A DNA stretch of 53,886 bases. It comes from Gammaproteobacteria bacterium. GTDB lineage: Bacteria; Pseudomonadota; Gammaproteobacteria; Xanthomonadales; Rhodanobacteraceae. Of the stretch, positions 5,105 to 41,263 are shown piece by piece. Made by a program: the position numbers and the translations under genes. How positions within the stretch are numbered: the first letter of the stretch is position 1; each line of letters starts with the position of its first letter. The stretch covers positions 1 to 53,886 of the forward strand of contig SHNG01000085.1 in NCBI GenBank assembly GCA_004295005.1, written 5' to 3'. The notes beneath the pieces were generated by a model. It ran no database searches. It was not told the DNA's origin and was given only the letters and a program-made list of their open reading frames with translations.

Positions 5105-5842
5105 ATGCGTACTCCGCGAATCTGTGTTTTCGATCCCCTGGCTCCAGGCATGGAGGTGAAGCTTCCAGCACAAGCGGGCGAGCATCTCGTGCGCGTGCTG
5201 CGCCTGGAGCGGGGACAACCGCTGGTCCTCTTCAATGGCGACGGTCGCGAGTATCACGCAGAACTCATCCAGCTTGCCAAGCAGGCGGTGGTGGCGAGGG
5301 TCACCGCCGAAGGCAAGGCGGTGGATCGTGAAAGTCCGCTCGACCTGACCCTGGCACAAGGCATTGCCCGCGGCGAGAAGATGGACATGATCCTGCAGAA
5401 GGCGACCGAACTTGGAGTTCGCCACATCGTTCCACTGATCACCGCGCGCACCGAAGTCAAACTCGATGCAGAACGCTCAGGCCGTCGCATGGCACATTGG
5501 CGGGCGATCATTGCCGGCGCCTGCGAGCAATCCGGTCGCGCGCATCTGCCCAGCCTTGCCGAACCCCTGCGCCTGCCCGAGTGGGCTGCACAGCTGGATG
5601 AATCAGTCGGCTTGCGACTGGCGCTCGATCCGGACGGAAGGTTCTCGCCTCGTGATCTGCCAAGCCTGTCCGCCGCCGTGCTGGTGGTCGGCCCGGAGGG
5701 CGGACTATCCGACCAGGACATGAGCCAGCTTGGCCAGTCGGGGTTCCAGGGTTTGCGCCTGGGCCCGCGGATCCTGCGAACCGAAACGGCCGGGCTTGCC
5801 GCCATTGCCGCCATGCAGGTGATGCACGGCGACTTCAGGTAA
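5105..5842 (+). CDS. rsmE: 16S rRNA (uracil(1498)-N3)-methyltransferase RsmE
   Basis: 245 aa, the usual length. SAM-dependent SPOUT methyltransferase that modifies U1498 of 16S rRNA. N-terminal PUA-like part (HLVRVLRLERGQ... FNGDGREY), a central EKMDMILQKATELGV motif, and the C-terminal knot with VVGPEGGLSDQD and LGPRILRTETAGLAAIAA, the cofactor-binding signature. ATG at 5105 matches the family N-terminus; a start 20 codons earlier is open but unconserved. It follows bioA on the same strand after 167 bases with no recognisable gene, and converges on chpC. Confidence 0.94.
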   Translation: MRTPRICVFDPLAPGMEVKLPAQAGEHLVRVLRLERGQPLVLFNGDGREYHAELIQLAKQAVVARVTAEGKAVDRESPLDLTLAQGIARGEKMDMILQKATELGVRHIVPLITARTEVKLDAERSGRRMAHWRAIIAGACEQSGRAHLPSLAEPLRLPEWAAQLDESVGLRLALDPDGRFSPRDLPSLSAAVLVVGPEGGLSDQDMSQLGQSGFQGLRLGPRILRTETAGLAAIAAMQVMHGDFR

Positions 5843-5913: not shown

Positions 5914-6378
5914 TCAGGCAGCCAGCACTTCCGCAATCAGCCTCTCGATGGTGCCGAGATCGGGGATGACGGCATGGTCATCGCGGACCAGCACTTCCGA
6001 TTGCACGCCCGGTCCAAGTTCGGACTCGTCTCCGGTGGTGATCAGCAACTCCGGCGTAATCGTCGTGAGGCGCGGGAAGCCCTGGGCCAGCATCGCGATG
6101 AAGGGCAACTTGGCAGCGCCACCCAGGGCCTTGAGCACGGTGACGCGGGCATTGCGTGAATCTTCCTCGCTGGCATGGCCGGCCAGCATGGGCAGCGAGA
6201 ACAAGGGCAGGCGCCAGCCGCGCCAGCCCAGGCGACCGAGCAACCATGCCGGAGCGCCCTCGATCTTTTCCGGTGCGGTGTAGGTGATCACCTCGGCCAC
6301 CGTCGCGTTCGGCAACAGCACGCGCCCTCCGGTTACCGGAATCATGACGCCTCGGATTTCGCGCGGTAGATCTGACAT
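5914..6378 (-). CDS. chpC: CheW-like protein ChpC of the Chp chemosensory system
   Basis: 154 aa. A single CheW-like domain: an N-terminal MIPVTGGRVLLPNATVAEV strand pair, then LGRLGWRGWRLPLFSL, matching the CheW core that docks receptors to the histidine kinase. In Pseudomonas, ChpC is a second CheW homologue at the end of the pil/chp cluster, and the position here (last, after chpB) is the same. ATG at 6378 is preferred: it has a GAGGAA ribosome site 6 bases upstream; a GTG lies directly before it. The intergenic gap to chpB is 10 bases. Confidence 0.82.
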   Translation of the reverse strand: MSDLPREIRGVMIPVTGGRVLLPNATVAEVITYTAPEKIEGAPAWLLGRLGWRGWRLPLFSLPMLAGHASEEDSRNARVTVLKALGGAAKLPFIAMLAQGFPRLTTITPELLITTGDESELGPGVQSEVLVRDDHAVIPDLGTIERLIAEVLAA

Positions 6379-6388
6379 CACCCGTTCC

Positions 6389-8368
6389 TCAGTTTCTTGC
6401 GGCCATTTTCAGGTCACTCATGACCTTGCCGGCCAGCGCCTTGGGCGAGCCGGCAAAGGTGACCACTCCGGTTTCGATCACGCCATCCACCATCGAGCTG
6501 ATCACGCAGGTATCCGGATCCTGGACATAGACGCGGCCACCGATTCCTGCCAGATAGACACTGCCTTCCGCGGCGTCTTCGGCCATTCCGGAAAACACGA
6601 TGACGCCGGCGTTGGCTCCAAAGGCATCCGCAACATCGTTGAGCACCTGGTCGATGGACGGCCGGTTGCCCTGGGTGTTCTCTGGCAGCAGTTCGAGAAG
6701 GATCACGCCCTGCTTGTTGACCCTCAGTCGATGGGTGGTGGGGACAATGACGATGTCGCCATGCGCCACACGCTCGCCATGTGTCGGCGTGCGCACGGTC
6801 AATTGGATGGCACGAGCCAGCTGTTGCGCCATGATGTCCACAAACTCAGGCCCCATGTGCTGGGCAAGCAGGAACAGGGCCGGGCAATCCTTCGGCAACT
6901 CGGCAAGAAATTCACGCACCGCCTCCGGACCACCAATGGATGCGCCCATCACCCAGACATTGCTGACGACTTGTTTCTTGGCGGCATCAGGATCCAACCA
7001 CACGCCGGGCCCATCGTTGTCGTGCATCGACTTGGCAGCGGCGGGTGCCATTGCTTCCTCGATAGGCACGAGCTCGAGCTCCACCAACGGTGTTTGTGGA
7101 ACCGGCGCTTGTGCTTCAGGCGCCAGGAAATCCGCAGCGCTGATGGTTTCAATGCCAAATTCGGCGGGTTGCGCAGTTGGGGACGCGGCATTCGGGGTGG
7201 ATTCGCCCTCATCAATTTCTTCAAGAGACCACGAGAATGCGGATCCGATTTCCACCGCAGGCACGGCCGCGACCTGATCATCCGGATTGGCCTCCCTGCT
7301 CGCCGGCGGAGTATCGGCAAAGTCCAGGTCCAGCAATTCCAGCTTGACGACACCGGCGCCATCGGCTGCCTCATCAGCGGCGGCAGCCTCTTGCACGGGG
7401 TCGGAAACTGCCGGGGCCGGACGAACCGGTTCCACCTCGAAGCTGAGATCCAGCAAGGGACCGTCCTCCGCGGCACCGTCGGCAAAATCATCCAGATCGC
7501 CAAAGCCGATTCCCCCATCCGCTGCCGCCAAAGGTTCCGGCTCGGCGTCGGCGTCGGCGTCGGCTTCCACTTCGAATTCGGATTCGGTCTCGTCGATGAC
7601 AATCGCCTCAAAGGCAACCGTGGACAGGTCGTCAATGTCGGCAGCCGGCGCATCGACAGGGGTCGGTACATTGACGGTACGGGGTTCATCGTCGAATGCG
7701 GAGAGATCGAGCACCGGCATGGGCACCGTGGCAAACATCATGTCGATGTCGGCGCTGGCGGCATTCCCGATGGGTGCGGAATCGGGTACCGGCTCGGGCT
7801 CGACTTCCTGCAGCAGACTGACGATATCCGCAAAGTCGTCCGCAACCTCGGGTGCCTCAGGCTTCAATTCAATGGCGGGTTCGGTCATCAACTCCGGCGC
7901 GGCCTGCGCAACCACGGGCGCGGGTGGTTCATCGAACGACTCATTCGATGCAATCACCTCTACCGCAGCCACAACCACGGGTGCAATCACCCGCTGTGGC
8001 ACCGCTTCGGCACCTTCCGGTCGCGGAGGATCGGCGTTTTCCGCACCGGTGATCTTGGCAACCAGATGGCGCGCCCAACGGGCCTGCTCCCAACCTGAAA
8101 GCTGGCTGGATACCTGCGCCTCGTTGAAGATGACGTTGTAACGCTCATCGTCGAGCAGCGCATAGACATCGTCGAGGTGGGATTCGACATCCGGATCCAG
8201 ATTGACCACCACCACACGGGCACCGGAACGCTCCAGCGCATCCCGATCCAGGTCGGATGCCGCTGCTTCATAGACGATCGGGGTTCCGACATGCATCAAC
8301 GCGTCGCGAAGATGCCGTCCGGTCTCTCCGGTCTGCGAGAGCAATGCAATTGAAATCGACTCATGCAT
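6389..8368 (-). CDS. chpB: CheB-type methylesterase ChpB with long acidic linker
   Basis: 659 aa, nearly twice the length of ordinary CheB. Demethylates the receptor (PilJ) in the twitching chemosensory pathway. Residues 1-110 are a degenerate receiver-like domain (IALLSQTGETGRHLRDAL start, no clear DD acid pocket). Residues about 115-460 are a low-complexity linker very rich in Glu, Asp, Ala and Pro. From about 465 on is the CheB domain: Ser near 474 (GASIGGPEA), His near 502 (AQHMGPEF) and Asp near 595 (FSGMAEDAAEGS) form the expected catalytic triad. The start overlaps the chpA stop by 8 bases. Confidence 0.85.
   Translation of the reverse strand: MHESISIALLSQTGETGRHLRDALMHVGTPIVYEAAASDLDRDALERSGARVVVVNLDPDVESHLDDVYALLDDERYNVIFNEAQVSSQLSGWEQARWARHLVAKITGAENADPPRPEGAEAVPQRVIAPVVVAAVEVIASNESFDEPPAPVVAQAAPELMTEPAIELKPEAPEVADDFADIVSLLQEVEPEPVPDSAPIGNAASADIDMMFATVPMPVLDLSAFDDEPRTVNVPTPVDAPAADIDDLSTVAFEAIVIDETESEFEVEADADADAEPEPLAAADGGIGFGDLDDFADGAAEDGPLLDLSFEVEPVRPAPAVSDPVQEAAAADEAADGAGVVKLELLDLDFADTPPASREANPDDQVAAVPAVEIGSAFSWSLEEIDEGESTPNAASPTAQPAEFGIETISAADFLAPEAQAPVPQTPLVELELVPIEEAMAPAAAKSMHDNDGPGVWLDPDAAKKQVVSNVWVMGASIGGPEAVREFLAELPKDCPALFLLAQHMGPEFVDIMAQQLARAIQLTVRTPTHGERVAHGDIVIVPTTHRLRVNKQGVILLELLPENTQGNRPSIDQVLNDVADAFGANAGVIVFSGMAEDAAEGSVYLAGIGGRVYVQDPDTCVISSMVDGVIETGVVTFAGSPKALAGKVMSDLKMAARN
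7541..7566. repeat. Hexanucleotide tandem repeat inside chpB
   Basis: About four copies of TCGGCG on the plus strand. They encode an alternating Ala-Asp stretch in the acidic linker of ChpB. The unit is a multiple of three, so copy-number change would alter linker length without a frameshift. Confidence 0.7.
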
Positions 8369-11300
8369 CGGAACGGCTGGTCCTCAAGGTTTCCTGAACC
8401 TGGCGCAGCAGGTCGGCTTCCTGATACGGCTTGCCCAGGTAGCGCTCAACACCGATTTCCAGGGCGCGCTGGCGATGCTTCTCGCCGGTACGCGAGGTAA
8501 CCATGATGATTGGCACACCCTTCAGCCTCGAATCGTTGCGCATGTAGGTGGCGAGTTCGTATCCGTCCATGCGCGGCATCTCGATGTCGAGCAACATCAG
8601 GTCGGGGATGCTGTCCTGCAGCTTCTCGACGGCATCGAGGCCATCCTTCGCCGTCACCACATCCATGTCCGCGCGCTCCAGCACGCGGGTGGTGACCTTG
8701 CGCATGGTGATCGAATCGTCCACGACCATGATCATGGTCTTGCGCCGCACTTCGGGCTGAACAGGCGCTGGCGTGATGGCTGCTGGCGCTGGTGCCTCGC
8801 CTGCGGCAACACTGGCACGCAGCGATGCAACGCGGCGGACCAGCGGAGCCAGATCGAGAATCATGACCACGGAGCCGTCACCCATGATGGTGGCGCCGAA
8901 GATTCCGGGTACCGAACTGATCTGCGGACCCACCGACTTGACCACGATTTCGCGCGATCCGACCACACTGTCGATGCGCACGGCTGCACGCTGATCGCCG
9001 GTGCGGGTCATCAACAGTGGCAACTGGGTCTCATCGACGATGCGTCCCTGCGCAACGCCGAGCAGTTGGGAAAGCTCATACATGGTGAAGTCTTCACCCG
9101 CGTAGGTGTAGATGGGCTCACCGCTACTGACGCGTTTGTTGTAGTCATCCAGCGCGATGCGCACCACGCCCTGCACGGAAGACATCGGCACCGCATAGGT
9201 TGAATCACCAAGCTTGACCAGAATCGCCTGGGTGACGGCAAGCGTGAATGGCAGGCGGATGGTGAACATGGTTCCAGAGCCGGGCACCGAGTCGATGACC
9301 AGCGAACCACCCAACTGCTTGATCTCGCTGTGCACGACGTCCATGCCTACGCCACGTCCGGAAAGCTGGGTGACTTTCTCTGCCGTGGAGAATCCGGTTT
9401 CCAGCACGAATCCGTACAGGTCGCGATCCGACAACTTCGCTTCCGGGCTGAGCAAGCCCAGGGCAATCGCCTTGCGCCGGATCGCATCGCGATCCATGCC
9501 CGCGCCATCATCGCTGATGCGCAGAACCACTTCGGTCGACTCACGGGAGACGCGAATGGTGACCGTACCGTCGAGCGGCTTGTTGGCCGCCAGACGTTCC
9601 TGCGGCGTTTCGATGCCATGTGCGAGTGCGTTGCGCAGCATGTGCTCGAACGGAGCCTTCATGCGCTCAAGCAGGTTGCGATCCATTTCACCCTGCGCAC
9701 CCTCAACCTTGAGTTGGGCGCGCTTGCCAAGTTCCTGGGCCGCCTGGCGCAGGGTCCGGCGCAATGAGGGCACCATCGAATCGAACGGCACCATGCGCGT
9801 GCGCATGAGACCTTCCTGCAGGTCCGAACTGACGCGCGACTGCTGCAAAAGCAGGGTTTCGGATTGGCGCGTCAGGTCATCCAGCAGGCCTTGGATCGAC
9901 ACAAGGTCGGAAACCGATTCGCCCAGTGCACGCGAGTACTGCTGAAGCTGCGAGAAACGATCCAGCTCGAGCGGATCGAACACGGTATCCGCACCTTCGT
10001 GATGCTCGCGCTGATAGCGCGCAATGATCTGGGCTTCGGTTTCGATTTCCAGCTTGCGCAGCTGTTCACGCAAACGACTGACCGTCTGCTCGAACTCGAT
10101 CAAGTTGAAGCGGAAGGTTGAAATCTGCTGTTCGAGGCGGGAACGATAGATCGAAACCTCGCCCGCGTAGTTGACCAGCGAGTCGAGCAGTTCGGAACGC
10201 ACGCGGATCATTTCCTGCGGCGCGCGCGGTTCCTCTTCGATCTCGCTGGCGGTGATCGTGCGGGGAGCCGGTGCCCGTACCGGCTCGGCAATCGGGGCGG
10301 CTTCCGCTTCGACGTCGGCAACGGGCTCGGCAGCGGCAGCCTGCACAGCAATTTCCTCGCCGCTGGCGAGGGCGGAAAGGCGCGCAATCATCGCTTCCGG
10401 CAAGGCGATCGCTTCGCGCCGCGCGATGCGCTGAACCAGCCCATGCAGACTGTCGTAGCTGCGCTCAAGCGCTTCCACGGCGGCGAGATCCATGCTGCGA
10501 TGCCCGTCATAAGTGGCGTCGAGCAGGGACTCCATGGCATGGGTCAAGTCACCGATTGGCCCGATGCCAGCCATGCGCGCACCACCCTTGAGGGTGTGCA
10601 GGTCGCGCTGCAGGGTTGCAACCAATTCGCGATCCTGTGGCGCCTCGCGCAGTTTGGCCATGACCGAATCGGAATGGTCAAGGATGTCATTGCCTTCCTG
10701 CACGAATATATCGAGCAGATCCTGGTCCATCTCCGGCAAATCAAGCGGACCTTCGGGTTGCACATCCACTGGCATCGTGAAGGCCGCGCGCACTGGCGGG
10801 CGGACTTCAGGCAACGGCTCGGGCTTGACCACCGCCGGCTCGTCGGGAATCGGCTGATCATGCAGTCCGGCTGCCTCGATCTCTTCCAGCAGATCCGCGC
10901 CGGGTGTTTTTTCCAGCGACAGATCGGCTTCGGCCGGCAACTGCGCGGGTTCAACTTCTCCGAACCGCACGGCCTCGTCATCGGCCGCTTGCAGGGTGTC
11001 GGATTGACTGTCCGCCGCAATCGCGTCGACCTCGATTTCGTCGAACTCGCCCGAGAAATCAAAATCCACCGCCTCGGTCTTGATCGGCTCTTGCGCGGGT
11101 GTCTCGGCCGCAGATGGCAATGGCCTTGCCTCATCCTCAAGATCAACCAGATCGAGCGTGTGGGTCAGCTCCGCGCTTGCAGGCGCATCCGCAGCGAGCG
11201 AGTCGATATCCCACTCCAGCGAGGTCTCCGCTTGCGCAGGGATGATCCCTTCGCTTTCGGCCAGCGCTACATTCGGGCTTGCGGTCCACTCGGCATGCGG

Positions 11301-29558: not shown

Positions 29559-29704
29559 TTGGTTCACATGTGCGCCATGGAATCTGATCGGCGCGATGTC
29601 CGTCGAACGCTCGCTTTCTTTCGCGTCGCGATACGACGAACTCGGATTCATGCAATTCGCATTCGGTTCCGTGGCATTTGACGTGCAGACAAGGAAGCCA
29701 ACAC

Positions 29705-32700
29705 ATGAACCAAGCCACAAGCTGCTATTTCGGCGCTCGTCGCCACAGAGAATGGGCACCCATCGGCAGAATGTTCCTGCCTCTCATGCTTTGCTGTCTG
29801 CCCTTGGGAGCGCCATGTGCCGCACCGGTCATTACCGGCTTCTCACCTGCAAGCGGCGCCGATCAAACTGTCGTAACGATTGATGGCTCCGGATTCGGAT
29901 CTCTCGCAGAGCAAAACACGGTAACGCTTGGAGGTGAAGTTCATCTGGGGGGAAGGCTGCTTCGCGTTCTCAGCGCTTCTCCCACCCGCCTTACTGTTGA
30001 GATTCCGCCCTATGCGTGGACCAACAGGATAAGAGTCGAAGTTGCCGGAACCTGGGGGCAAAGCGTCAACAGTTTCGTTGTAGCCCCTGACATCCGCTTG
30101 TTTAGTCCCCTGCAAGGCGTGTCGGGGGCCCCGATCGAAATTCGCGGGATGAACTTTGATGCTGTGCCCTCCGGAAATCAGCTACAGATCAACGGGATTC
30201 CGATTCCAGTGACCTTCGCGAACACGAGCAATCTTCGCGCGACTATTCCGACTGGCGCAACAACGGGATTGTTCGAGGTTTCCAGGAATGAGCTCACCGG
30301 CAACAGCAAATGGCCTATCGAGATCGCCCCAACCAACCTGAACATCGATGGATTTCAGCCAGGAACCGGCGCTCCCGGAACAGCTGTAAAGATCAAGGGC
30401 CGCTCCTTTGCCACTGCGCAAAATGCCAATCAGGTCAGCTTCAACGGTTTGCCTGCCGAGGTCGTCTCTGCGTCCCCCGATCAGTTGAATGTTGTCGTGC
30501 CTGCTGGAGCGGAAACCGGGGCGATATCCATAATGGTCAATGGTGAAACCGCGGTTTCCGCATTTCCCTTTCACATTGCTCAATTGGGCGCGACCTTGCT
30601 TGCTGATGGTCCCGCGTTGCAGGCCAACATAGCTCAGCCCGGAGGATTCAAGGATTTTACGTTCGAAGCACTCACGGGCGAGAGCTTTGGAATTGGCGTC
30701 TCCTCGGTCCTGCAAACGCCCAGCAACATTTCCAGAAAACCGCAGGTGTCCGTGCGCAGACCGGACGGCTCCACCTTGAAGCTTGTCAATTGCGAATCCT
30801 CCTGCGTAATCGAAGCTACAGCCTTGCCGGTTTCCGGCACATACACGGTCAGGATAGCTGCCAACAGTCCAGCCTCGACACTCGCTGCGCTGGTCTCACT
30901 TACGCGGACCCTTGCAGCCACGCTGAGTCCGGATGAAGCGATGGACTTGGAAATGGACCGGGTCGGACAGGTCTGGAAATTGCAGTTTTCCGGAGCCGAA
31001 GGAGCAACTCACTCGCTGGAGCTTTGGACCTCCACGGAACGTATGGCGCTGATGGGGAATGATGTGTTGTTCCATGCTCCTGACGGAAGCCTGCTGATTT
31101 CGGAGTTTCAATCCGTGAGCTGTGTGGGGGGCTGCGGCTACCGCTATTTCCTGCACGATTTGCCGCAAACCGGCGTCTACACAATCACCATCAGGAAGGC
31201 TGACGAACTGACGGAAACCATGCGCGTCCGCTTGAGAAATCCTGTGCCGATTGAAATAGATGGGCCATCACACTATGGACAAGCCAGGTTCAGAAACGAG
31301 ATGGGTCTGTTGAGCTTTTTTGCACATGCCGGACAACGTCTCGATCTCGGAATCATCTTGCCGATCACGTGGAATCACCAGATCAATAGGTACTATTCAC
31401 ATCGCGCCAGAGTCACCCTGTTCGATCCAGACGGCACCAAACTTTCTGAAATAGCTTTGTGCCAATCATTTCTTGGACCGAGCGTTCCCAGCAATTATTC
31501 GGATGCAGGATGCGCCTTGCCGATCCTCAATGCACCACGCGATGGAAACTACACAGTCGCGGTGCGCGCGTTCCACACGGATCCAGGCGATGAGCCGACT
31601 CGATTCATTGCCACGGTGTCTACGCCCTACTTTGCACAAACATCTACTGGCGGAACAGAAATTGCGCTCAACCTGTCCCGTCCTGGTCAATCGGGCGTCA
31701 TCCGCTTCGAGGGAACCCAAGGCCAGAATCTCCAGCTCAATGGCAGCCCGCGCTACAACTCTGAAATTCAGGCGCCAATCACCCTGTATCAGCCGAACGG
31801 AAGCGTTCTGCTGACGCTTCCCAGTGCGAACAGTCAGGGAGCCATCGATCTACCGACCCTTCCCGCAAGCGGCACCTATATCCTGGAAGAAGGCACCGGC
31901 GGTCGATCCATCACCGAGAAGCACCTTCACTTGCCCATCTCGATCAGGCCGCTGAGTTCGTGCGATGCGCGCGCATCCGCAATTTTCACAGAGACATCCC
32001 TCAGTGCCGTGGTGCCCGCGGAAGTCGTTCTGGGCCAGACCTTCGATGTGAATGCGTTGGTCACGCCGCGAAACGGCGCATGCGGCCCTGCTGCGGGAAC
32101 CGTGCGCGTCACCATTGAAGGAACTACCACGACGTGCAGCTATGCGCTTCCTGAGCAGTCCGGCTGCACCCTGCAAGCCACCAAAACGGGGTATCTGAAC
32201 CTCAAACTCCAGTTCCTGCCCTCGAACCCGAACGTGTTCGCCCCAAGTTCGCGCAACGTCAGCCGTGTCGTCAATGTTCTACGTAAACCGGTTGAAGTAC
32301 GCATCGTCAGTATTTCGCCTGAGCCAGTTCAAGCAGGCCAAGCCCTTGCAGCGGTAGTTGAAGTGAATGCGATGCCTGGCGAACCCCTAACTCCGACCGG
32401 ACAAGTAGTCGTGAACAGTTCGAGCGGCGGAAGCTGCCAATTCATGTTGCCCGCAACAAGTTGCAGCGTGACGCCCAACCAAGCCGGCGCGCACCAGATC
32501 ACCGCTGCTTACATGGGCAACGCCACGTTTGCACAGACATCATCAAGTCCGATGGCTCACACGGTTGTACCAAGGCCACCGACGATCAGCTCATTTTCAC
32601 CGACTGCAGCTTTGCCCGGCGCAAACGTGACCATCAACGGGACCAGCTTCTTGTCGTCATTCGGCAGCACAATGGCCAGGTTTAACGGTGTTGAAGCCAA

Positions 32701-34612
32701 TATTGTTTCAGCCACTGCAACTCGTATCGTCGCTAAAGTCCCGGCAAGCGCAACATCCGGCCCCATTCAGGTGATTGTGGCAGACCAGTCGGTAACCAGC
32801 GCGAGCAGTTTCACGGTACTGGTTCCTCCGCCACCCGTAATCTCCAGCTTCTCGCCGACAAGCGGCCTGTATGGCAGTCACGTCACCATCAATGGAAGCA
32901 ACTTTGCGTCATCAAGCGCCGGAAATGTCGTCCAGTTCAACGGCATCCAGGCCAGCTTGGTTAGTGCTACTGCTACTCGCATCGTTGCGGAGGTTCCAGT
33001 CTGGTCCACAACCGGGCGAATCACGGTAGCCGTTGCCGGACGCACCGCCACAAGCAACACGGACTTCACGGTGACCTCGCCCTTCCCGCAACCCCAAATA
33101 TCCGGATTTGCACCCGGTAGCGGTGTGGTCGGTACGACAGTCACGATTTCGGGTCAGGGCTTCAGCGCAGAAGGCGCAAGCGGCAATGTCGTCACCTTCA
33201 ATGGGCAGTCGGCGTATGTCATGCAGTCCAGTGCTACTCAAATTGTCGCCTTGGTCCCCAGCGGTGCCAGCACCGGACCCATCACGGTAACGGTAGATCA
33301 AAGAACCGGAGTCAGCGCCAACCCGTTCACCGTAATCCCTACCGGCACCGAACTCGCAAACGTGTCCATTGCGCGAGTCGATCCGGAGCCATCCGTTGTC
33401 GGCCAGAGTTTCACCATCAACGTTGACGTAACACCGGCATCTCCAGATGGCCCGCCGCCCAGCGGCGTCGTCACCGTCAGCGACGGCGTGTACGGCTGTC
33501 AAATCGTACTGCCGGCTACAAGCTGCTCCGCCATGCAGTCCGAAATGGGAGAAACCATTCTGTACGCTTGGTACACCGGCGACGTGACCTATGCTGGCGC
33601 CTGGTCTGACAGCTTTCCGCACATCACCAATCCCGCAGTTCCTACCGAAATTTGCGGATTCGATCCAAACACCGTTCCAAATGACCCGCCTGGTTTTGTA
33701 CCCATTGAGCAGTTGAGCGGTGCCGTGTACAGCGCTGGTCAATCCCGCAACATTACCGGGGACGGCACGCTAAGCGTGACCTTCGATCCGTCACTGCAGA
33801 ACTCCACCACCCCTGAAGCCTACATTGACGTGACCGGCACGTTCCATGGGCCGATCAATACCGGCATCACCATCAATGGTGTCGTGGCGCAGACTGCCAA
33901 TGGACAATTCCTGGCGCCCAATGTACGCCTGACACCGGGCTTCAATACACTCGAGGCCATTGCCACAACCTTGCCCGGTCTCACCGCAACCGCCTCCATT
34001 GGCTTGAGCCGAAGCGGGCCGGAGCCTGCGCTTTCGCTAAGCGCCGTCCAATCCATTGGCATGGCACCAACGCTCATGCATTTCAATGTGGAATTGGGCA
34101 CAACCCTGATTGGACAGGCTTTTCAAAGCATTCGCATCGATGCCGACGGTGATGGAGCCTTTGATCACAGCGCGGGCTCGATTGATCAACTGAACCGGAC
34201 ATTCGCATTCGGCGACCCCGGGCTCTACAAGGCGCTGATTCAGGTCACCACCACAGGTGGTGATGTCCATACCGCTTCCGAATGGCTGCTGATCCGCAAT
34301 ATGGCTGCCGAGCGCGGCGCCTTTTGCGACATCTACGGCTATCTGAAAGCGCGCTTGCAAGAGTCCGACGCCGCAGCGGCCAGTCGCGCCTATGCATCAG
34401 GCGTTCGACCCGATTATCTTGACAGCTTCAGCGCGCTTGGCACGGATCTCCCGAATCTGGTTCCGGAACTGGGAACCATCGTGAGCGGATTTGCCGGCCC
34501 AAGCTACACGGAAATGCTGATCATGCGCGACAACGAGAATCAGACACGCAGTGGATTCCATGTGCATATGGTTCAAGACAGTGATGGTGTCTGGCGTATT
34601 GCCGGAATGTGA
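29705..34612 (+). CDS. Large secreted multidomain protein with IPT/TIG and other Ig-like repeats
   Basis: 1635 aa. Start at ATG 29705 with an AAGGAAG ribosome site; a signal-type hydrophobic stretch (FLPLMLCCLPLGAPCA) ends just before the first domain. In order: three IPT/TIG-like domains (about 43-300; FSPASGADQTVVTIDGSGFG), three pre-peptidase-C-like beta domains (about 300-750, each ending near GTYTV or NYTV), two Big_3-like domains, three more IPT/TIG domains in tandem (about 955-1215; ISSFSPTSGLYGSHVTINGS), another Big-like domain, a PKD-like segment with DADGDGAFD near 1480, and an unknown C-terminal 100 residues ending VWRIAGM. No cell-wall or membrane anchor seen. The stop is 5 bases before A1. 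Function unknown; probably surface-exposed or secreted. Confidence 0.82.
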   Translation: MNQATSCYFGARRHREWAPIGRMFLPLMLCCLPLGAPCAAPVITGFSPASGADQTVVTIDGSGFGSLAEQNTVTLGGEVHLGGRLLRVLSASPTRLTVEIPPYAWTNRIRVEVAGTWGQSVNSFVVAPDIRLFSPLQGVSGAPIEIRGMNFDAVPSGNQLQINGIPIPVTFANTSNLRATIPTGATTGLFEVSRNELTGNSKWPIEIAPTNLNIDGFQPGTGAPGTAVKIKGRSFATAQNANQVSFNGLPAEVVSASPDQLNVVVPAGAETGAISIMVNGETAVSAFPFHIAQLGATLLADGPALQANIAQPGGFKDFTFEALTGESFGIGVSSVLQTPSNISRKPQVSVRRPDGSTLKLVNCESSCVIEATALPVSGTYTVRIAANSPASTLAALVSLTRTLAATLSPDEAMDLEMDRVGQVWKLQFSGAEGATHSLELWTSTERMALMGNDVLFHAPDGSLLISEFQSVSCVGGCGYRYFLHDLPQTGVYTITIRKADELTETMRVRLRNPVPIEIDGPSHYGQARFRNEMGLLSFFAHAGQRLDLGIILPITWNHQINRYYSHRARVTLFDPDGTKLSEIALCQSFLGPSVPSNYSDAGCALPILNAPRDGNYTVAVRAFHTDPGDEPTRFIATVSTPYFAQTSTGGTEIALNLSRPGQSGVIRFEGTQGQNLQLNGSPRYNSEIQAPITLYQPNGSVLLTLPSANSQGAIDLPTLPASGTYILEEGTGGRSITEKHLHLPISIRPLSSCDARASAIFTETSLSAVVPAEVVLGQTFDVNALVTPRNGACGPAAGTVRVTIEGTTTTCSYALPEQSGCTLQATKTGYLNLKLQFLPSNPNVFAPSSRNVSRVVNVLRKPVEVRIVSISPEPVQAGQALAAVVEVNAMPGEPLTPTGQVVVNSSSGGSCQFMLPATSCSVTPNQAGAHQITAAYMGNATFAQTSSSPMAHTVVPRPPTISSFSPTAALPGANVTINGTSFLSSFGSTMARFNGVEANIVSATATRIVAKVPASATSGPIQVIVADQSVTSASSFTVLVPPPPVISSFSPTSGLYGSHVTINGSNFASSSAGNVVQFNGIQASLVSATATRIVAEVPVWSTTGRITVAVAGRTATSNTDFTVTSPFPQPQISGFAPGSGVVGTTVTISGQGFSAEGASGNVVTFNGQSAYVMQSSATQIVALVPSGASTGPITVTVDQRTGVSANPFTVIPTGTELANVSIARVDPEPSVVGQSFTINVDVTPASPDGPPPSGVVTVSDGVYGCQIVLPATSCSAMQSEMGETILYAWYTGDVTYAGAWSDSFPHITNPAVPTEICGFDPNTVPNDPPGFVPIEQLSGAVYSAGQSRNITGDGTLSVTFDPSLQNSTTPEAYIDVTGTFHGPINTGITINGVVAQTANGQFLAPNVRLTPGFNTLEAIATTLPGLTATASIGLSRSGPEPALSLSAVQSIGMAPTLMHFNVELGTTLIGQAFQSIRIDADGDGAFDHSAGSIDQLNRTFAFGDPGLYKALIQVTTTGGDVHTASEWLLIRNMAAERGAFCDIYGYLKARLQESDAAAASRAYASGVRPDYLDSFSALGTDLPNLVPELGTIVSGFAGPSYTEMLIMRDNENQTRSGFHVHMVQDSDGVWRIAGM

Positions 34613-34617
34613 TCGCG

Positions 34618-35436
34618 ATGAAACGCGCACTCATCATCCTGGCCGTATTGCTGATCGCCGCCATCACGCCATTCGTGCCGCAGTTCTTGGATTATGTCGT
34701 GGTGAGCATGCGCAAAACCGGCGTCGTGATCGACGACGAAACCGGAAAGCCGATGCCGAATGTGATCGTGATTGCTGCGGCCTCACACAGCAGTGCAGGC
34801 CTGCTGGTTGTACCTGGTGGAACGAACCCCTTGTATCGGGTGGTAACGCAGACCGATTCCCACGGACGATTCGAGATTCCTGCGTCCTGGAGCCGGTTCC
34901 ATTTGGCATTGCCACATCAAAACCCGAGATACGACTGGGTGATCACCGTGTTCCATGTCGGCTATGCCGTGGTCGGCGACCGGCCCGACCAGGAACTGCT
35001 CCATGCTGGATATTCCACTTACGAAAACCCTTCGCTCACAGACATGCCCGGGCACTCGTTTCGGTTTACGCATATCGAAGTCGATCCGATCCGCATGTAC
35101 AAGCCGACGCTGGGCTTGAAGGAAGCTGCGATCTACTACTCGAGAGTGCGCCGCACCGGGGGGCGTTCACCCAACTCGAAAGAACCGCTCGATGAAGCCA
35201 TGCGTCGGCAAGGTTACAACCTCTTCGCGCCTTGGGTTTGCGGACTGGATCCAAACATGGAAATAGGTTCTCCGCCGAGGGGCTCAATTCTCCAATTTGC
35301 GTTGGATGAGCTCAAGTCCATAGAAAAAATTGCGGAGCAGAGTGTGAAAGAGGGCTTTCCGCATAGCGAGTTTGCCCCCTCGACCAAAGCCGGGATGGTA
35401 TGTGCGATTCTCACCGACGGAAGAAATACACCATGA
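34618..35436 (+). CDS. A1: membrane-anchored carboxypeptidase-regulatory-like protein
   Basis: 272 aa from ATG 34618, aligned with the starts of A2 and A3; a GTG at 34609 overlapping the previous stop is the alternative. An N-terminal hydrophobic anchor (residues 4-25) is followed by MRKTGVVIDDETGKPMPNVI, a beta-sandwich opening typical of CarboxypepD_reg-like domains, with TQTDSHGRFEIPA and FHVGYAVV completing it. Then family-specific blocks IEVDPIRMYKPTLGLKEAA and GYNLFAPWVCGL, and a C-terminal VCAILTDGRNTP. Two cysteines (about 207 and 262) recur in all three A proteins and could form a disulfide. Its TGA overlaps the B1 ATG. Function unknown; located outside the inner membrane by topology. 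Confidence 0.8.
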   Translation: MKRALIILAVLLIAAITPFVPQFLDYVVVSMRKTGVVIDDETGKPMPNVIVIAAASHSSAGLLVVPGGTNPLYRVVTQTDSHGRFEIPASWSRFHLALPHQNPRYDWVITVFHVGYAVVGDRPDQELLHAGYSTYENPSLTDMPGHSFRFTHIEVDPIRMYKPTLGLKEAAIYYSRVRRTGGRSPNSKEPLDEAMRRQGYNLFAPWVCGLDPNMEIGSPPRGSILQFALDELKSIEKIAEQSVKEGFPHSEFAPSTKAGMVCAILTDGRNTP

Positions 35437-36107
35437 AAAGGAAGAAGAGTTTGTTCATCGTGTTAGCGCTTGTAGCTGGTTGTTGTCCTGCGTTGGCATA
35501 CGAAACGCAGACCCACGCGCTGATAACACGCGAAGCCTATGCCCGATCCTCGTTAGCGAGCGATGCTGGCAACTCGATCCGGCACCGAACGGGGCTGAAT
35601 CGATTGCATCCATATTCCGTCTTCAATGCTTACTGGTCAGGAGACACCGCGGCCTATTACCTTGACGGTGGCGACAACGGCCCGACCGCTTCCGTTGACT
35701 ACCCAGACAGGTTTGAAAAATGCCAGATGCGCGCGTTTCTTGGCCTTGCCAGCGATGAAACCAGAATTCAATACTACAGATTGTTCGCCAACACGGTCGA
35801 GTCGAGCGGCTACCCCGAAATCCTCCCCATCCAGAACTGGCTGATTCGCGGCGCTATTCGCGAAGATGATATGGGTGACGGGATTGGCTGGTTGAGTTTG
35901 AGTAAAGCGATCTGCGGCTCGAAATGGGGTGACACCATCGAAAATCAGCCTGGGCGGATCATGCGACCGTTTCGGCATTTCTTCGATCCCATTTACCGAC
36001 GGGGACTCAGCGTTGCGGGAATCGGCTACCCAAGGTCCGTGGATTGGGCATTGGGCTACCAGGACAGTTTCGCAAACCCGCGTTCACAACTGACGGGTGC
36101 CGCATGA
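35433..36107 (+). CDS. B1: secreted, truncated phospholipase C/P1-nuclease-like protein
   Basis: 224 aa. Signal peptide 1-22 (ends PALA), mature start YETQTHALITREAYARS. The His (H28), the acidic group of GAIREDDM (D145/D146) and H182 in RHFFDP correspond to the N-terminal zinc ligands of the phospholipase C/P1-nuclease fold. The protein ends with GYQDSFANPRSQLTGAA just before the region that carries the remaining ligands in B3, so it cannot hold the whole trinuclear site. Same length as B2. ATGA overlaps on both sides. Whether it is a decoy, a partner of B3 or a relic is unknown. Confidence 0.78.
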   Translation: MKRKKSLFIVLALVAGCCPALAYETQTHALITREAYARSSLASDAGNSIRHRTGLNRLHPYSVFNAYWSGDTAAYYLDGGDNGPTASVDYPDRFEKCQMRAFLGLASDETRIQYYRLFANTVESSGYPEILPIQNWLIRGAIREDDMGDGIGWLSLSKAICGSKWGDTIENQPGRIMRPFRHFFDPIYRRGLSVAGIGYPRSVDWALGYQDSFANPRSQLTGAA

Positions 36108-36925
36108 AACGCTTGCTGCTTGCACTTCTGATCATTTTCACACTTCTGGTTTTGCTGTTCCTGCCACAGTTGCCTGACCGTTTGGCAGTGCACATGGCCA
36201 AGACTGGCACAGTGGTGGACTCGAAAACCGGAAGACCCATGCCGAATGTGATCGTGATCTCGGCCGGATGGGCTTCCCATGGTCCGCTACTTGTGGGTCC
36301 GGGCGGATACGCGCACCTGTACCAGTTCGTTACTACTACCGACGCGCAAGGTCGCTACGAAATTCCCTCGACGTGGTCAACGTTTGGTCTTGCGCTTCCC
36401 GGAAGCGAACCACGTTCTGGCTGGATCGCAACTGCGTTCAAGCCGGGTTATGCGGTAGTCGGGGATGAGAAAAGTTGGAAGGTATTCCATTCAGATGGCA
36501 CCACGATGTTCAAACCGCGTTCGGTATTTGACACACCGGGGGCATCGTCTCGCGGCATCTACCTGGAAGTCGAGCCTATCAAGTTGTACCGGCCCACAAT
36601 GACCCTTAAGGAAGCGGCGGTCTACTACGGCGCGATCAAGGGCGCTGCACGACTTGGCTTGCTTCCGACAGACACGAACAAGATCGCTATCCGACAGCAA
36701 GGTTATGAACTTTTAGCACCGTGGGTCTGTGCCCTCGACGTGAATACAGAGTTGGACTATTCGACGATGGCGTTTATCGAAGGATTCGCTGAAAACGTGT
36801 TGGATGCGTCGGCGTTGCTCAAGGATTTGGAGCCGGAGCAATCTCGATTGGAACCATACGAAAATCCCAAGTTCAGGGCAGGTAACGTGTGCAAGGTCGT
36901 CACCAATGGAAGGGGAGTGCCATGA
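36104..36925 (+). CDS. A2: membrane-anchored carboxypeptidase-regulatory-like protein
   Basis: 273 aa, paralogue of A1 and A3. Hydrophobic anchor about 3-22, then MAKTGTVVDSKTGRPMPNVI, TTDAQGRYEIPSTW, FKPGYAVVGDEK, YLEVEPIKLYRPTMTLKEAA, GYELLAPWVCAL and the C-terminal VCKVVTNGRGVP. Its start codon overlaps the B1 stop. Upstream of it the only ribosome-like sequence is GACGGGTGC inside the B1 tail, which is also present before A3. Confidence 0.8.
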   Translation: MKRLLLALLIIFTLLVLLFLPQLPDRLAVHMAKTGTVVDSKTGRPMPNVIVISAGWASHGPLLVGPGGYAHLYQFVTTTDAQGRYEIPSTWSTFGLALPGSEPRSGWIATAFKPGYAVVGDEKSWKVFHSDGTTMFKPRSVFDTPGASSRGIYLEVEPIKLYRPTMTLKEAAVYYGAIKGAARLGLLPTDTNKIAIRQQGYELLAPWVCALDVNTELDYSTMAFIEGFAENVLDASALLKDLEPEQSRLEPYENPKFRAGNVCKVVTNGRGVP

Positions 36926-37596
36926 ATCGATTGACCGCAACAGTGGCGGCACTTTTCATCGCAGCCGGATCGGGGTTCGCTAGCGCCTATGAAACGCAGA
37001 CGCACGCGTTGATCACTCGAATGGCTTACGAACGATCAGTTCTTGCCAAGACCGACGGCAACTCGATTGCAAAGCGCTTGGGCTTTGATCGCTTGCACCC
37101 GAACGACCCGTTCAAACCTTACTGGCTGCCGGAGGCGGAAGCGCTCTACTACCCGATTGGGAGTGATTTCGCCGAGTTCATCTACTTGGCCGACGCACCG
37201 GCGAATTTTGAGCGGTGCCAGATGCGTCTGTTTCTTGAACTCGGACAACCGCGCGAGTTGTTCAGAAACTATTTTCGCAATACCGTTGAGTCTGCCGGTC
37301 AAACTCCACTGCTACCCATCCAAAACTGGCTGATTCGCGGCGCTATTCGCGAAGACGACATGGGCGATGGTCTCGGCCAGATTGGATTGATGGGAAGCGA
37401 CTGCGCTTGGGAATGGTGGAACACCATTGATGACCAGCCCGGAAGAATCACCCGCCCATTCAGGCATTTTTTCGATCCCATTTACCGACTGGGACTCAGC
37501 GTTGCGGGAATCGGCTACCCAAGGTCCGTGGATTGGGCATTGGGCTACCAGGACAGTTTCGCAAACCCGCGTTCAGCGCTGACGGGTGCAGCATGA
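36922..37596 (+). CDS. B2: secreted, truncated phospholipase C/P1-nuclease-like protein
   Basis: 224 aa. Signal peptide 1-22 (ends ASA), mature start YETQTHALITRMAYERS. Keeps H28, D145/D146 (GAIREDDMGDG) and H182 (RHFFDP), and stops at the same residue as B1 (SALTGAA). A strong ribosome site AAGGGGAG lies 6 bases before its ATG, which argues it is translated and not just a relic. Its last 126 bases match B1 at 121 positions, while the N-terminal part differs much more. Confidence 0.78.
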   Translation: MNRLTATVAALFIAAGSGFASAYETQTHALITRMAYERSVLAKTDGNSIAKRLGFDRLHPNDPFKPYWLPEAEALYYPIGSDFAEFIYLADAPANFERCQMRLFLELGQPRELFRNYFRNTVESAGQTPLLPIQNWLIRGAIREDDMGDGLGQIGLMGSDCAWEWWNTIDDQPGRITRPFRHFFDPIYRLGLSVAGIGYPRSVDWALGYQDSFANPRSALTGAA

Positions 37597-38426
37597 AACG
37601 CATCCTGCTCGCCATTGCGGTAATTCTGCTCCTGCTCATCACTTCCCTGCTTCCGCAGATCACCGGACTGCTTGCCACGCGCAGCGCCAAAACCGGCTTG
37701 GTCATCGACAGTACAACCGGCAAGCCCATGCCTCATGTCATCGTGATTGCGGCAGGGCGGGTTTCCGCAGAGCCAGGGTTTCCGGTCGGGCAAGGTGGTA
37801 CGAAACCTCTGTACCGGATTGTCACTTCCACCGATGCAGATGGGCGCTATTACATCCCTGCGGTGTGGACCAACCTCGACCCCTTCGTCGACATTCCCGT
37901 CCCCTTTCGTAACCAACAATGGACTTGGGTGATCACTGCATTCGAGATCGGCTACGCGGTAGTGGGCGATGAAAAGACCTGGCAGTTTGATGAACGCGGC
38001 ATAGGAAACTACCGACCGCGCTCAGGCCTGTATGTGCCGCCACACTCCTGGGCGGGTTCTGTCATCGAGGTCGATCCGATCAGGATGTACAAGCCTACGT
38101 TGAACCTCAAGGAGGCTGCCGTTTACTACAGCAGGATTCGAACAGTCGGTAATCCGTATAGGGCATCGACTGATCCCGGAGACTTGGCGATGCGCGCCGA
38201 GGGTTACGCATTGCTCGCGCCATGGGTATGTGCGCTGAACTCACAGCAAGTGATCGACGTGACGACAATTGCCTCTCTTTCGGGATTTTCGTCAGATAAG
38301 GACCGCGCATACGAACTTCTGGAAATGCTGGCCCCAGGCGTGGCTCGGTCAGATGCATCGCAGGGAAGGACGACATCCGCAGAGATTGCATGCAAGTTCA
38401 TCACCAACGGACGAGGTACGCCATGA
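37593..38426 (+). CDS. A3: membrane-anchored carboxypeptidase-regulatory-like protein
   Basis: 277 aa. Anchor about 4-22, then SAKTGLVIDSTTGKPMPHVI, STDADGRYYIPAVW, FEIGYAVVGDEKTW, IEVDPIRMYKPTLNLKEAA, GYALLAPWVCAL and the C-terminal ACKFITNGRGTP. It precedes the full-length B3 and is the closest of the three to a presumed ancestral A-B pair. The stop overlaps the B3 start by ATGA. Confidence 0.8.
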   Translation: MKRILLAIAVILLLLITSLLPQITGLLATRSAKTGLVIDSTTGKPMPHVIVIAAGRVSAEPGFPVGQGGTKPLYRIVTSTDADGRYYIPAVWTNLDPFVDIPVPFRNQQWTWVITAFEIGYAVVGDEKTWQFDERGIGNYRPRSGLYVPPHSWAGSVIEVDPIRMYKPTLNLKEAAVYYSRIRTVGNPYRASTDPGDLAMRAEGYALLAPWVCALNSQQVIDVTTIASLSGFSSDKDRAYELLEMLAPGVARSDASQGRTTSAEIACKFITNGRGTP

Positions 38427-41263
38427 ACTCGGTAGGGAAGGCATTACTGCTGTCAGGAATTGTTCTCGCAAATTCCGCATTCGGCTTTGAAACGCAAACG
38501 CACGCGCTGATGACGCGCGAAGCGTATGCAAGGTCGCAGTTGGCCACGGATGCGGGTGGGTTGTTGAAGCGCCTGGGCCTGGACCGTCTGTATCGTGATG
38601 ATCGATTCCAAATGTACTGGGATGCCGATGTGCGGTCCCGCTATTACAAGGATGGCGGCCAGTCGGGTGGTGACATTCAGGCGATCGACTACCCTGCTGG
38701 ATTTGAAGCTTGTCAGATGCGCGACTTCCTAGTACTCGATGAGGAGAGAGACCGGAAGTTTGGACACTCGTTCGTGAATACTGTCCACTCCGCCGGCAAT
38801 CCCAACCTCTACCCCATCCAGAACTGGCTGGTTCGTGGCGCGATCCGTGAAGACGATATGGGCCCCACCATCCTCGGCTGGTATCCGTTGCTTAACGTCT
38901 CACGATGTGCGTGGGAGTGGTTCTTGACCGTGCCCGATCAGCCGAACTACCTCCCGCGCTCCTTCCAGCACTTCTATGACCCGGAGTTTGATCGCGGCCT
39001 GTCTGTTCTGCAGATCCCCCAGGAAAAGTCCGTTGACTGGGCGCTCGGGTACGAGGACAGCTTTGTCAGCCCCGCAACCCCCGCGCAAGGAGTTGGAAGG
39101 AACACCTACAGTTACCTCGATGCCCGAAACGCCTACTGGTGGGCATTGACGCGCCGACGCAGCAAGGAGACTGGAAGCCCGGACAACCCGGCCAACCGCG
39201 CGTCCGATTCCAAAGACCGCATGATTCTATGGGCCACGATGTTTCGCTCATTGGGGAACGTGGTCCATTTGCTGCAAGATGCCGCCCAGCCTCAACACAC
39301 GCGGCTTGATCCGCACTCCGCCAAGGACGGCGACCAGCAACAGGCATTTGAAGGTTTCACCAATGCCCGCATCCTGGGCGGCGATGGTGTCGGCAGCTTC
39401 GTTCACGGATTCTATTCAAGTCTCGAACCCGAAGATTTGTCCATACCGCCGCTTGGCGCGTACGGCAGCACGGCTCCCGTCATGTTCTCGATTCCGCTCC
39501 GATTCTTCACCACACGAAGTAGTCTCGGCGGTGCACAAACTGGCTTCTTTGCCCGATCTGGCATGGCGGACTACTCCAGTCGCGGTTTCTTTACCGGCGG
39601 CACGCTGCCCGGCATGGAGGGCGACACCCCGCATCAGGCACCTCCCCAGGATTTTGACAACCCGGCCAATGGTTACTCCATCAGTTACTCATCGTGCGAA
39701 TCGGCCTTTGTCGTCGATGAGCGACTCCGCGCGGCAACCTGTCTGCATTTCCTGCACGCAGTGCCGGACACGGTGAACCCGGACTACGCCGGTTCCATGG
39801 ATGTATTGCCGCCCGGCTTTAGCCTTCCGAATGCACCGATTGCCGCGGACGGAATCTTTCGGGAATTCGCAATGTCTCATGGATCAGCATTTCCGAGGGA
39901 TATATCCAGGGTGACCTGGTCACCCCAGGTACTCGAAACCATCGGCAACCTCACCATCCCGCGTGCCATCGGTTATTCGGCGGGTTTGCTCGACTTCTTC
40001 TTCCGCGGCGAGATCGAGCTGTCTTCGCCGCCGGATGGCTTGTATGCGGTCATCGATCAGGGCACGCCGCACCATGTCGAGGATGGAATCCCCATGGATG
40101 AAGCCGGACGGGTGTTTGGCTTTCACGCCTTGCGCGTGCGGGTGCGCAATGTCACGAACCTCGTCGATGGCAACCACACCCTGCGCGATGCCGGAACCGG
40201 AGAGATTGTTCCGCAAACCATGCACTCAGGTGTCGATTCCAGCGGCAATCCAACCGGCCATCTGGTGGCCATCGCCCGCTATCACCGCAATCCCTGCTAT
40301 CAGCCGGATTTGTCCGGTGAATATGTGGTGATGCCCGATCCGCAAACCGGCATTCCCAACCCCAGTGACAAAAGGATTCCCAGTGGTTGCGCACTGCAAG
40401 ATTCCCGCAGCGCGTTCGTGGAGATCTCGGTGTCGGCTCCGCTGCAACTGGACGCAAGCGGAAATCTGCCAGGTCCACCTGCCGGATCCATCAACCCCTG
40501 CGTAAATGCAGGCAACATCAACTCGGGAGCCCACGGAATCGGCAGCGAGTGTGAGAACGACGCGGTATTGGCCCAGTTTGATTTCAGCAACGATCCCATT
40601 CCAATCAATGCCACCGACTTGTTTGTGCAGGTAGCCTATCGTGGGCCGCTTGGATTCGAAGATGACGGTATTGCCGTTGGCAGCAAGGATATCGACGAGA
40701 CCAACTACATCACGCTGTGGAACGGAACCGACAGGTTCTACCACAATGGCGAATGGGTAGCACCGGAAGATTTCGCGGATGTCCCGGACAACGTACCTTG
40801 GCAACCAACCCCCATAGACGAAGCCCTCTTCTGCTTCGCCGAGCAAACCATCGTTGATATGGCGCCGGGGGAAACGGTCCAACCTGCGCGCTTTCTTCGC
40901 ATTGGCGTGCTGAGTGACGCCCAACCGGTTCCGTTCGGAATCTATGCAGAAATGGGCCTGCGTGGTCAGTTCATGACGCTCTCGGCAAACAGAGCCCAGC
41001 GGCAAACCTGGATGGAGGACCCCGCCCTTGCATCCTACAATCCCGCGCCATTTCTCTGGTATGGGCGGGGAACCGTGGCGGGCGGCAACTTCCTCGCCCC
41101 CTTCTACGCCTACGGCGAAGGTTCGCAAGACAACACCATGCAATCCCTGATCCTGAACCCGCCCATTGGTGGCGGACTACCTGGCTTTGCCAGACCGGTG
41201 ACTGCGGGTTTCGACGTTGCTGCAGACAAGTGCAAGCGGGTTCCGCCTCCGCCAGCGGGCTGA
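38423..41263 (+). CDS. B3: full-length secreted zinc-dependent phospholipase C/P1-nuclease-like protein
   Basis: 946 aa. Signal peptide 1-21, mature start FETQTHALMTREAYARS. Putative zinc ligands: H27, D144/D145 (GAIREDDM), H183 (FQHFYDP), then H282, D286 and H292 in NVVHLLQDAAQPQHTR. The H-x3-D-x5-H spacing is that of His118/Asp122/His128 in Bacillus cereus phospholipase C; the Glu in AFEGFTN follows. After about residue 480 comes a roughly 460-residue C-terminal part, beta-rich in appearance with several cysteines, that I do not recognise; it may be a binding or secretion domain. Ribosome site GACGAGG before the ATG. Likely a phosphoesterase acting outside the cell or in the periplasm; the substrate is unknown. 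Confidence 0.8.
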   Translation: MNSVGKALLLSGIVLANSAFGFETQTHALMTREAYARSQLATDAGGLLKRLGLDRLYRDDRFQMYWDADVRSRYYKDGGQSGGDIQAIDYPAGFEACQMRDFLVLDEERDRKFGHSFVNTVHSAGNPNLYPIQNWLVRGAIREDDMGPTILGWYPLLNVSRCAWEWFLTVPDQPNYLPRSFQHFYDPEFDRGLSVLQIPQEKSVDWALGYEDSFVSPATPAQGVGRNTYSYLDARNAYWWALTRRRSKETGSPDNPANRASDSKDRMILWATMFRSLGNVVHLLQDAAQPQHTRLDPHSAKDGDQQQAFEGFTNARILGGDGVGSFVHGFYSSLEPEDLSIPPLGAYGSTAPVMFSIPLRFFTTRSSLGGAQTGFFARSGMADYSSRGFFTGGTLPGMEGDTPHQAPPQDFDNPANGYSISYSSCESAFVVDERLRAATCLHFLHAVPDTVNPDYAGSMDVLPPGFSLPNAPIAADGIFREFAMSHGSAFPRDISRVTWSPQVLETIGNLTIPRAIGYSAGLLDFFFRGEIELSSPPDGLYAVIDQGTPHHVEDGIPMDEAGRVFGFHALRVRVRNVTNLVDGNHTLRDAGTGEIVPQTMHSGVDSSGNPTGHLVAIARYHRNPCYQPDLSGEYVVMPDPQTGIPNPSDKRIPSGCALQDSRSAFVEISVSAPLQLDASGNLPGPPAGSINPCVNAGNINSGAHGIGSECENDAVLAQFDFSNDPIPINATDLFVQVAYRGPLGFEDDGIAVGSKDIDETNYITLWNGTDRFYHNGEWVAPEDFADVPDNVPWQPTPIDEALFCFAEQTIVDMAPGETVQPARFLRIGVLSDAQPVPFGIYAEMGLRGQFMTLSANRAQRQTWMEDPALASYNPAPFLWYGRGTVAGGNFLAPFYAYGEGSQDNTMQSLILNPPIGGGLPGFARPVTAGFDVAADKCKRVPPPPAG

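What the first reader, a model, noticed from the sequence alone, without database searches (positions are those of the whole stretch)
34618..41263. Alternating triplicated A-B gene system: membrane-anchored regulatory-like proteins and secreted phospholipase/nuclease-like proteins
Six genes alternate A1-B1-A2-B2-A3-B3 with ATGA overlaps at every junction and a 1.49-kb period. A proteins share an anchor, a carboxypeptidase-regulatory-like domain and two conserved cysteines. B proteins share a signal peptide and a mature start of Y/F-ETQTHAL. The strict pairing and coupling suggest that each A works on its own B outside the inner membrane, for example as tether, chaperone or inhibitor. A toxin-immunity style set with multiplied protective genes is one reading; a chaperone-enzyme set is another. 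I know of no described system with this layout.
Basis: partly seen in the sequence, partly recalled or inferred. Interest (0 to 1): 0.88.

Follow-up and report, generated by a model that had tools for sequence, protein, structure and literature searches.

The report
Swappable partner genes beside exported enzyme
A Dokdonella genome carries a three-gene set (a surface-type protein, a membrane-tethered partner and a large exported enzyme-like protein) in which the partner gene has been multiplied together with cut-off pieces of its neighbour, a pattern best known from bacterial toxin-and-antidote gene arrays but not tested here by experiment.

Summary
The six-gene A-B-A-B-A-B run is real, but the reading changes. 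B1 and B2 (224 aa) are only N-terminal heads of B3 (946 aa); they stop before its H-x3-D-x2-QP-x-H motif. The upstream gene X (1644 aa) belongs to the unit.

In 26 distinct loci (Lysobacterales and other Proteobacteria) with X and B sequence on one contig, the order is X, slot gene Y, B. Y is not one family: A-like in 17, small three-helix membrane proteins in 8, another lipoprotein in 1; a membrane or lipid anchor was predicted in 24. Y is multiplied in 7 of 26; in the five A-type cases the extra copies adjoin pieces of B's 5' end or X's 3' end. One array lacks a full B, and orphan Y genes behind an X tail exist. In L089, near-identical A cores (98%) and inner B segments (93%) flank a strongly diverged A-end/B-start block.

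Best explanation: Y is a cognate, probably antidote-like partner of B, kept while modules are exchanged; B1 and B2 are displaced heads. B's enzyme class and toxicity are unproven, and family-wide tests of Y/B-head co-inheritance were weak. New variant of immunity-array logic, with the partner gene upstream and enzyme heads as debris.

The parts
29678..34612 (+). Gene X: 1644 aa, repeated IPT/TIG and Ig-like domains; start codon uncertain
   Evidence: ORF; TIG and Big_3_5 matches; X C-domain upstream of B in related loci
33626..34609 (+). Conserved C-terminal domain of X, ending GVWRIAGM; its tail recurs next to extra or orphan Y genes elsewhere
   Evidence: profile; tails
34618..35436 (+). A1 (slot gene Y, copy 1), 272 aa, N-terminal anchor, CarboxypepD_reg-like region (sub-threshold)
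35433..36107 (+). B1: 224-aa N-terminal head of a B protein, lacks HxxxD..QP.H motif
36104..36925 (+). A2 (slot gene Y, copy 2), 273 aa
36922..37596 (+). B2: 224-aa N-terminal head of a B protein
37593..38426 (+). A3 (slot gene Y, copy 3), 277 aa
38423..41263 (+). B3: full-length exported enzyme-like protein, 946 aa, candidate metal ligands H27, D145, H183, H282, D286, H292, E310
   Evidence: alignment; motif-level resemblance to S1/P1 nucleases (not significant)
35959..36110 (+). End of B1 and junction to A2, 86-100% identical to the end of B2 and junction to A3 (about 37448-37599); points to one shared truncation event

Best explanation
The locus is one X-Y-B cassette whose Y slot (gene A) has been multiplied. 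Shown by sequence: X, Y and B occur in a fixed order; Y differs in family between cassettes; extra A-type Y genes adjoin pieces of B's 5' end or X's 3' end; some units are mosaics. Inferred: B is an exported metal-dependent hydrolase-like effector; Y sits in the envelope and recognises the N-terminal part of its own B, most likely restraining it (antidote). When a new Y-B module arrives the old Y is kept because it still protects against the old B, while the old B remains as a 3'-truncated head. B1 and B2 are such heads; they stay open perhaps because translation through them couples, by ATGA, to the next A gene.
For: Order X-Y-B in 26 of 26 loci with X and B sequence on one contig (three of these hold only broken or partial B: L041, L044, L149). 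Y predicted to be anchored in 23 by the scan and in L076 by eye; L085 fell below the threshold and L041 could not be assessed. Y is of at least two unrelated-looking kinds (17 A-like, 8 small three-helix, 1 other lipoprotein). Y multiplied in 7 of 26 (window, L063, L084, L089, L149, L038, L081). In the five A-type cases the neighbours' pieces differ: B heads (window, L084, L089, L149) or X tails (L063); L072 has a ~14-codon B head. An array of three A genes without full B (L149) and orphan A genes behind X tails (L151, L171). L089 mosaic. Chiayiivirga flava pair L036/L081: X 75%, B 331-end 76%, B 1-245 50% identical, Y of different kinds.
Against: No function tested. B's fold unproven. Distance correlation of A's C-part with B's start, given the next B segment, was weak (r 0.12, 132 of 2000 permutations as high), and A's C-part tracked B 129-235 better (partial r 0.42). 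Clustering of Y type on B's N-part versus its C-part, clear with unequal rows (0 against 46 of 200 shuffles), was weak on the same 20 rows (21 against 61 of 200); the X tree clusters Y type too (2 of 200). B has a Sec-type signal and no delivery route is known. B itself is not strongly polymorphic in kind.
Confidence: 0.5

Rival explanations
1. Y is a membrane-tethered foldase or export chaperone for B, as lipase-specific foldases are for lipases; extra copies are by-products of local duplication.
For: Anchored protein encoded beside an exported enzyme-like protein in every cassette; the window's contig also holds a type II secretion pseudopilin gene; membrane-anchored foldases act before type II export of lipases (search listing and abstract starts).
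Against: Y is of several unrelated-looking kinds for homologous B; Y multiplied and kept without full B (L149, L151, L171).
Confidence: 0.18
2. The extra A genes and B heads are mere duplication and displacement debris with no selected function.
For: Cut points of B heads vary (188, 224, 236-237, 246 aa, a 91-aa internally deleted fragment, ~14 codons); one cassette (L041) and one X tail (L171) are decayed.
Against: Multiplication in 7 of 26 loci and in two kinds of Y, with pieces of either neighbour; A1-A3 and B1/B2 have diverged (dN 0.34 to 0.61) yet stay open, with third-position excess.
Confidence: 0.14
3. The A-B-head units are a reservoir of alternative sequences that re-write the end of A3 and the start of B3 by gene conversion, as silent cassettes do in antigenic variation.
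For: L089: near-identical arms around a diverged A-end/B-start block; B1 and B2 share 86-100% identical ends.
Against: In the window no 60-nt window of unit 2 against unit 3 exceeds 75% identity, so no recent exchange with B3 is visible; heads are translated units with own start codons rather than silent pieces.
Confidence: 0.1

Closest known systems
Type VI effector-immunity arrays of Vibrio cholerae (Kirchberger et al. 2017, PMC5361080; passages seen)
   Same: Partner genes accumulate; displaced effector pieces remain; orphan partner genes; mosaics by recombination.
   Different: Here the partner lies upstream of the enzyme-like gene, the debris is its 5' head (or the 3' tail of X), the product has a Sec-type signal, and toxicity is not shown.
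Polymorphic toxin and polyimmunity loci, including the Het-C domain (Zhang et al. 2012, PMC3482391; passages, Het-C section)
   Same: Homogeneous tandem paralogous partner genes; a phospholipase C / S1-P1-like active site proposed for a toxin domain; unrelated partner families for one toxin type.
   Different: B is variable mainly at its N-terminus rather than carrying swapped C-terminal toxin domains; no Het-C or other Pfam match; passages describe polyimmunity loci as usually without toxin genes.
Tle/Tli phospholipase effector and immunity pairs (search listings; abstract PMC10294624)
   Same: Phospholipase-like effector idea and envelope-located partner; one Tli both activates and neutralises its toxin.
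   Different: No type VI signature in the cassette; B has a Sec-type signal; relationship to Tle families not tested directly.
Lipase-specific foldase Lif/LipH (search listing and abstract starts)
   Same: Membrane-anchored periplasmic partner of an exported enzyme.
   Different: Y varies in kind and is multiplied; sequence relation not tested.

Membership tests
Toxin-immunity (polymorphic toxin / polyimmunity) system | adjacent partner gene beside the toxin candidate | tested here: met
   Y between X and B in 26 of 26 loci
Toxin-immunity (polymorphic toxin / polyimmunity) system | tandem or orphan partner genes | tested here: met
   7 of 26 loci with more than one Y; L149, L151, L171 without full B
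Toxin-immunity (polymorphic toxin / polyimmunity) system | toxicity neutralised by the cognate partner | not testable with these tools
   needs expression experiments
Toxin-immunity (polymorphic toxin / polyimmunity) system | toxin and partner specificity regions co-vary | tested here: inconclusive
   single-locus mosaics for; distance and matched-tree tests weak
Zinc-dependent phospholipase C / S1-P1 nuclease superfamily (B3) | significant sequence or profile similarity | tested here: inconclusive
   no Pfam match; hhalign score 27.5, probability 4.7%, above 30 column shuffles (max 21.8); in the earlier run 26.7 against 24.4 for an unrelated X profile
Zinc-dependent phospholipase C / S1-P1 nuclease superfamily (B3) | set of conserved His/Asp/Glu ligands | tested here: inconclusive
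   conserved H27, D145, H183, H282, D286, H292, H298, E310 in the alignment; ligand pattern of the superfamily recalled; no usable model
Zinc-dependent phospholipase C / S1-P1 nuclease superfamily (B3) | matching fold | tested here: inconclusive
   model pLDDT 49.9; no Foldseek match at E<=0.001; VIA rows cover only residues from about 525
Lipase-specific foldase (Y) | one conserved foldase family | tested here: inconclusive
   Y of several kinds; no Pfam family above cut-off for the window A proteins
Lipase-specific foldase (Y) | required for enzyme activity | not testable with these tools
   needs assay

The most novel reading that the evidence does not exclude
X-Y-B is an undescribed three-gene exported conflict system in which a contiguous specificity block (the end of Y plus the start of B) is exchanged between flanking arms (X tail or Y core on one side, inner B on the other). 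The multiplied Y-B-head units are both an antidote array and a donor pool for re-specifying B, and the truncated B heads are kept as translated bridges that couple expression of successive Y genes.
Probability: 0.25. Interest if true: 0.85.

Novelty: new variant of a known kind. Interest (0 to 1): 0.62.

Why it matters
If right, this is an envelope conflict system organised back to front compared with well-known effector-immunity arrays (partner first, enzyme head as debris). It offers directly testable pairs (A1, A2, A3 against B3), a natural partner swap inside one isolate genome (Chiayiivirga flava, L036/L081), and a signature (the X tail GVWRI.M just before a slot gene) for finding more members. 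If it proves to be a chaperone system instead, the slot would be filled by unrelated-looking chaperones for homologous clients, which would also be unusual.

Tried and rejected

Rows dropped from the 26: L072 and L083 (X, or the start of B, off the contig), L148 (X and A, then contig end), L150 (partial X), L064/L065 (X tails), L151, L170, L171 (orphans), L045 (weak match, no cassette seen), the G175 weak match (L020, not examined), L172 (long unrelated protein).

Full report
What was checked. The window is the whole of contig C14 of a 3.47-Mb, 197-contig genome, 87% complete. Two genomes that the tool places in its genus, G400 and G374, have contigs of the same length as records titled Dokdonella sp.; NCBI places Dokdonella in Rhodanobacteraceae, Lysobacterales.

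B1 and B2 are not whole copies of B3. They match only its first ~220 residues (46% and 50% identity) and stop before the conserved H282-x3-D286 / QP-x-H292 motif. The 1644-aa gene upstream, X, belongs to the unit: it ends 5 nt before A1, and its C-terminal domain, ending GVWRI.M, precedes B in related loci. An X C-domain profile was run on 299 order genomes: the strong matches (E<=1e-18) lie in loci with B or B pieces, apart from G033:C217 (X and A, then contig end, L148) and G152:C34 (partial X on a 3-kb contig, L150). Many weaker matches to Ig-like regions in the same search were not examined.

The cassette. I collected 26 distinct loci holding both X and B sequence on one contig, found by searches with B, X and A. 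They come from Lysobacterales and from records titled Candidatus Accumulibacter, Burkholderiales, Betaproteobacteria and Gammaproteobacteria. In all 26 a slot gene Y lies between X and B. In 17 it is A-like by profile; in 8 it is a small protein with three predicted helices (L076 judged by eye); in L035 it is another lipoprotein without an A match. An anchor (hydrophobic segment or lipobox) was predicted in 23 by my scan and in L076 by eye; L085 fell below the threshold and the broken L041 could not be judged. In three of the 26 (L041, L044, L149) B is broken or partial. B was matched in 15 of 398 sampled order genomes at E<=0.001, some weakly, so the system is sparse.

Multiplication. More than one Y occurs in 7 of 26 loci: window (3), L063 = Dokdonella sp. 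ACE_PRO72 (3), L149 (3), L084 (3, the first a 143-aa fragment), L089 (2), L038 (3 small membrane proteins) and L081 (2, perhaps 3). L072 has at least two (its X is off the contig). In the A-type cases the adjoining pieces differ: B heads of 224 aa in the window, 236-237 aa in L084, 188 aa in L089; in L149 a 246-aa head, a 91-aa internally deleted piece and a short head; about 14 codons in L072; X tails of 43 and 32-34 aa in L063. What the cases share is Y. L149 has three A genes and no full B. G003 carries an orphan A behind a 40-aa X tail (L151) and a second A-like gene behind a decayed X tail (L171), away from its cassette. One A-like gene (L170) has neither tail nor B. Of 14 A-profile matches at E<=1e-8 in 299 genomes, 12 adjoin B or a B piece; the profile was built mainly from such genes.

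Mosaic structure. In L089, unit 1 and unit 2 are 98% identical over 342 nt of the A core and 93% over 218 nt of inner B, while 60-nt windows starting between 6699 and 7170, covering the end of A and the start of B, are 28-63% identical. A simple duplicate diverging in place would not give this; exchange or conversion of segments would. In the window, the ends of B1 and B2 and the junctions to the next A are 86-100% identical while the rest of units 1 and 2 is 28-80%, so the two heads appear to share one truncation event; units 2 and 3 show no window above 75%. In the isolate Chiayiivirga flava, cassettes L036 and L081 have X 75% and B residues 331-end 76% identical but B residues 1-245 only 50%, and Y of different kinds. 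L071 and L034 are 58-86% identical in the last part of B but 18-46% before it.

Tests that did not support the idea. The distance correlation of A's C-part with B's start, given the next B segment, was weak (r 0.12; 132 of 2000 permutations as high), and A's C-part followed B 129-235 better (partial r 0.42). Clustering of Y type on the B N-terminal tree against the C-terminal tree was clear with unequal row sets (0 of 200 against 46 of 200 shuffles), weak with the same 20 rows (21 of 200 against 61 of 200); the X tree also clusters Y type (2 of 200). The claim that Y and B's head travel together therefore rests on single loci.

What B is. B3 has a signal-like start and conserved His/Asp/Glu residues that resemble the ligands of zinc-dependent phospholipase C and S1/P1 nucleases (pattern recalled). 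No curated family or PDB sequence matched B3. hhalign set the HxxxD..QP.H motifs in register with S1/P1 nucleases; score 27.5, probability 4.7%, P 0.0084, above 30 column-shuffled controls (maximum 21.8) and the reversed one (16.4); but in the earlier run the score was 26.7 against 24.4 for an unrelated X profile. A borderline profile match to the same superfamily is reported for the Het-C toxin domain (PMC3482391, section read). I treat the enzyme class as likely but unproven.

Mechanism. Best reading: exported B is held in check by its own envelope-tethered Y, and Y genes are kept and pile up as B modules are displaced. The analogous process is described for Vibrio type VI clusters (PMC5361080, passages). 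B1 and B2 are open (B1/B2 dN 0.34, dS 1.33; stop-free in 0 and 1 of 2000 base shuffles). Since the junctions are ATGA, translation through B1 and B2 could be needed for coupled translation of A2 and A3; this is inference.

Literature. Five searches of the held library showed, among the rows listed, no paper on an X-Y-B system of this kind or on such a Dokdonella locus. Papers outside that library, and rows beyond those listed, were not seen.

Noticed in passing
window 2976-3302 (-): A type II secretion pseudopilin (T2SSG) match at E 1.6e-40 lies on the same contig; neighbouring minus-strand frames at 367-1362 and 1359-2045 look like minor pseudopilins (recalled resemblance).
   Followed up: partly
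L149 (G152:C24:38000-54000, minus strand 6123-9740): Three A-like genes with B pieces but no full-length B after an X gene: an apparent orphan array.
   Followed up: yes
L151 8633-9699 and L171 about 4381-5368 (G003): Two orphan A-like genes directly behind X tails (one tail decayed by stops), far from the genome's own cassette.
   Followed up: partly
L170 (G150:C2:2082000-2092000, minus strand 5000-5788): A-like 262-aa gene with no X tail and no B nearby.
   Followed up: partly
L041 (G150:C1, 17-kb contig): A whole X-A-B cassette broken into many frames on a small contig; whether the contig is a plasmid was not tested.
   Followed up: no
L071 against L034, B from about alignment column 550: The C-terminal part of B is 58-86% identical between an Accumulibacter and a Lysobacterales genome while the rest is 18-46%, suggesting horizontal exchange of the C-part.
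   Followed up: partly
L084 9790-12765 and L085 6971-9634: B proteins outside Lysobacterales carry RCC1-type or BNR-type repeats in their C-part, so the C-part differs in kind.
   Followed up: no
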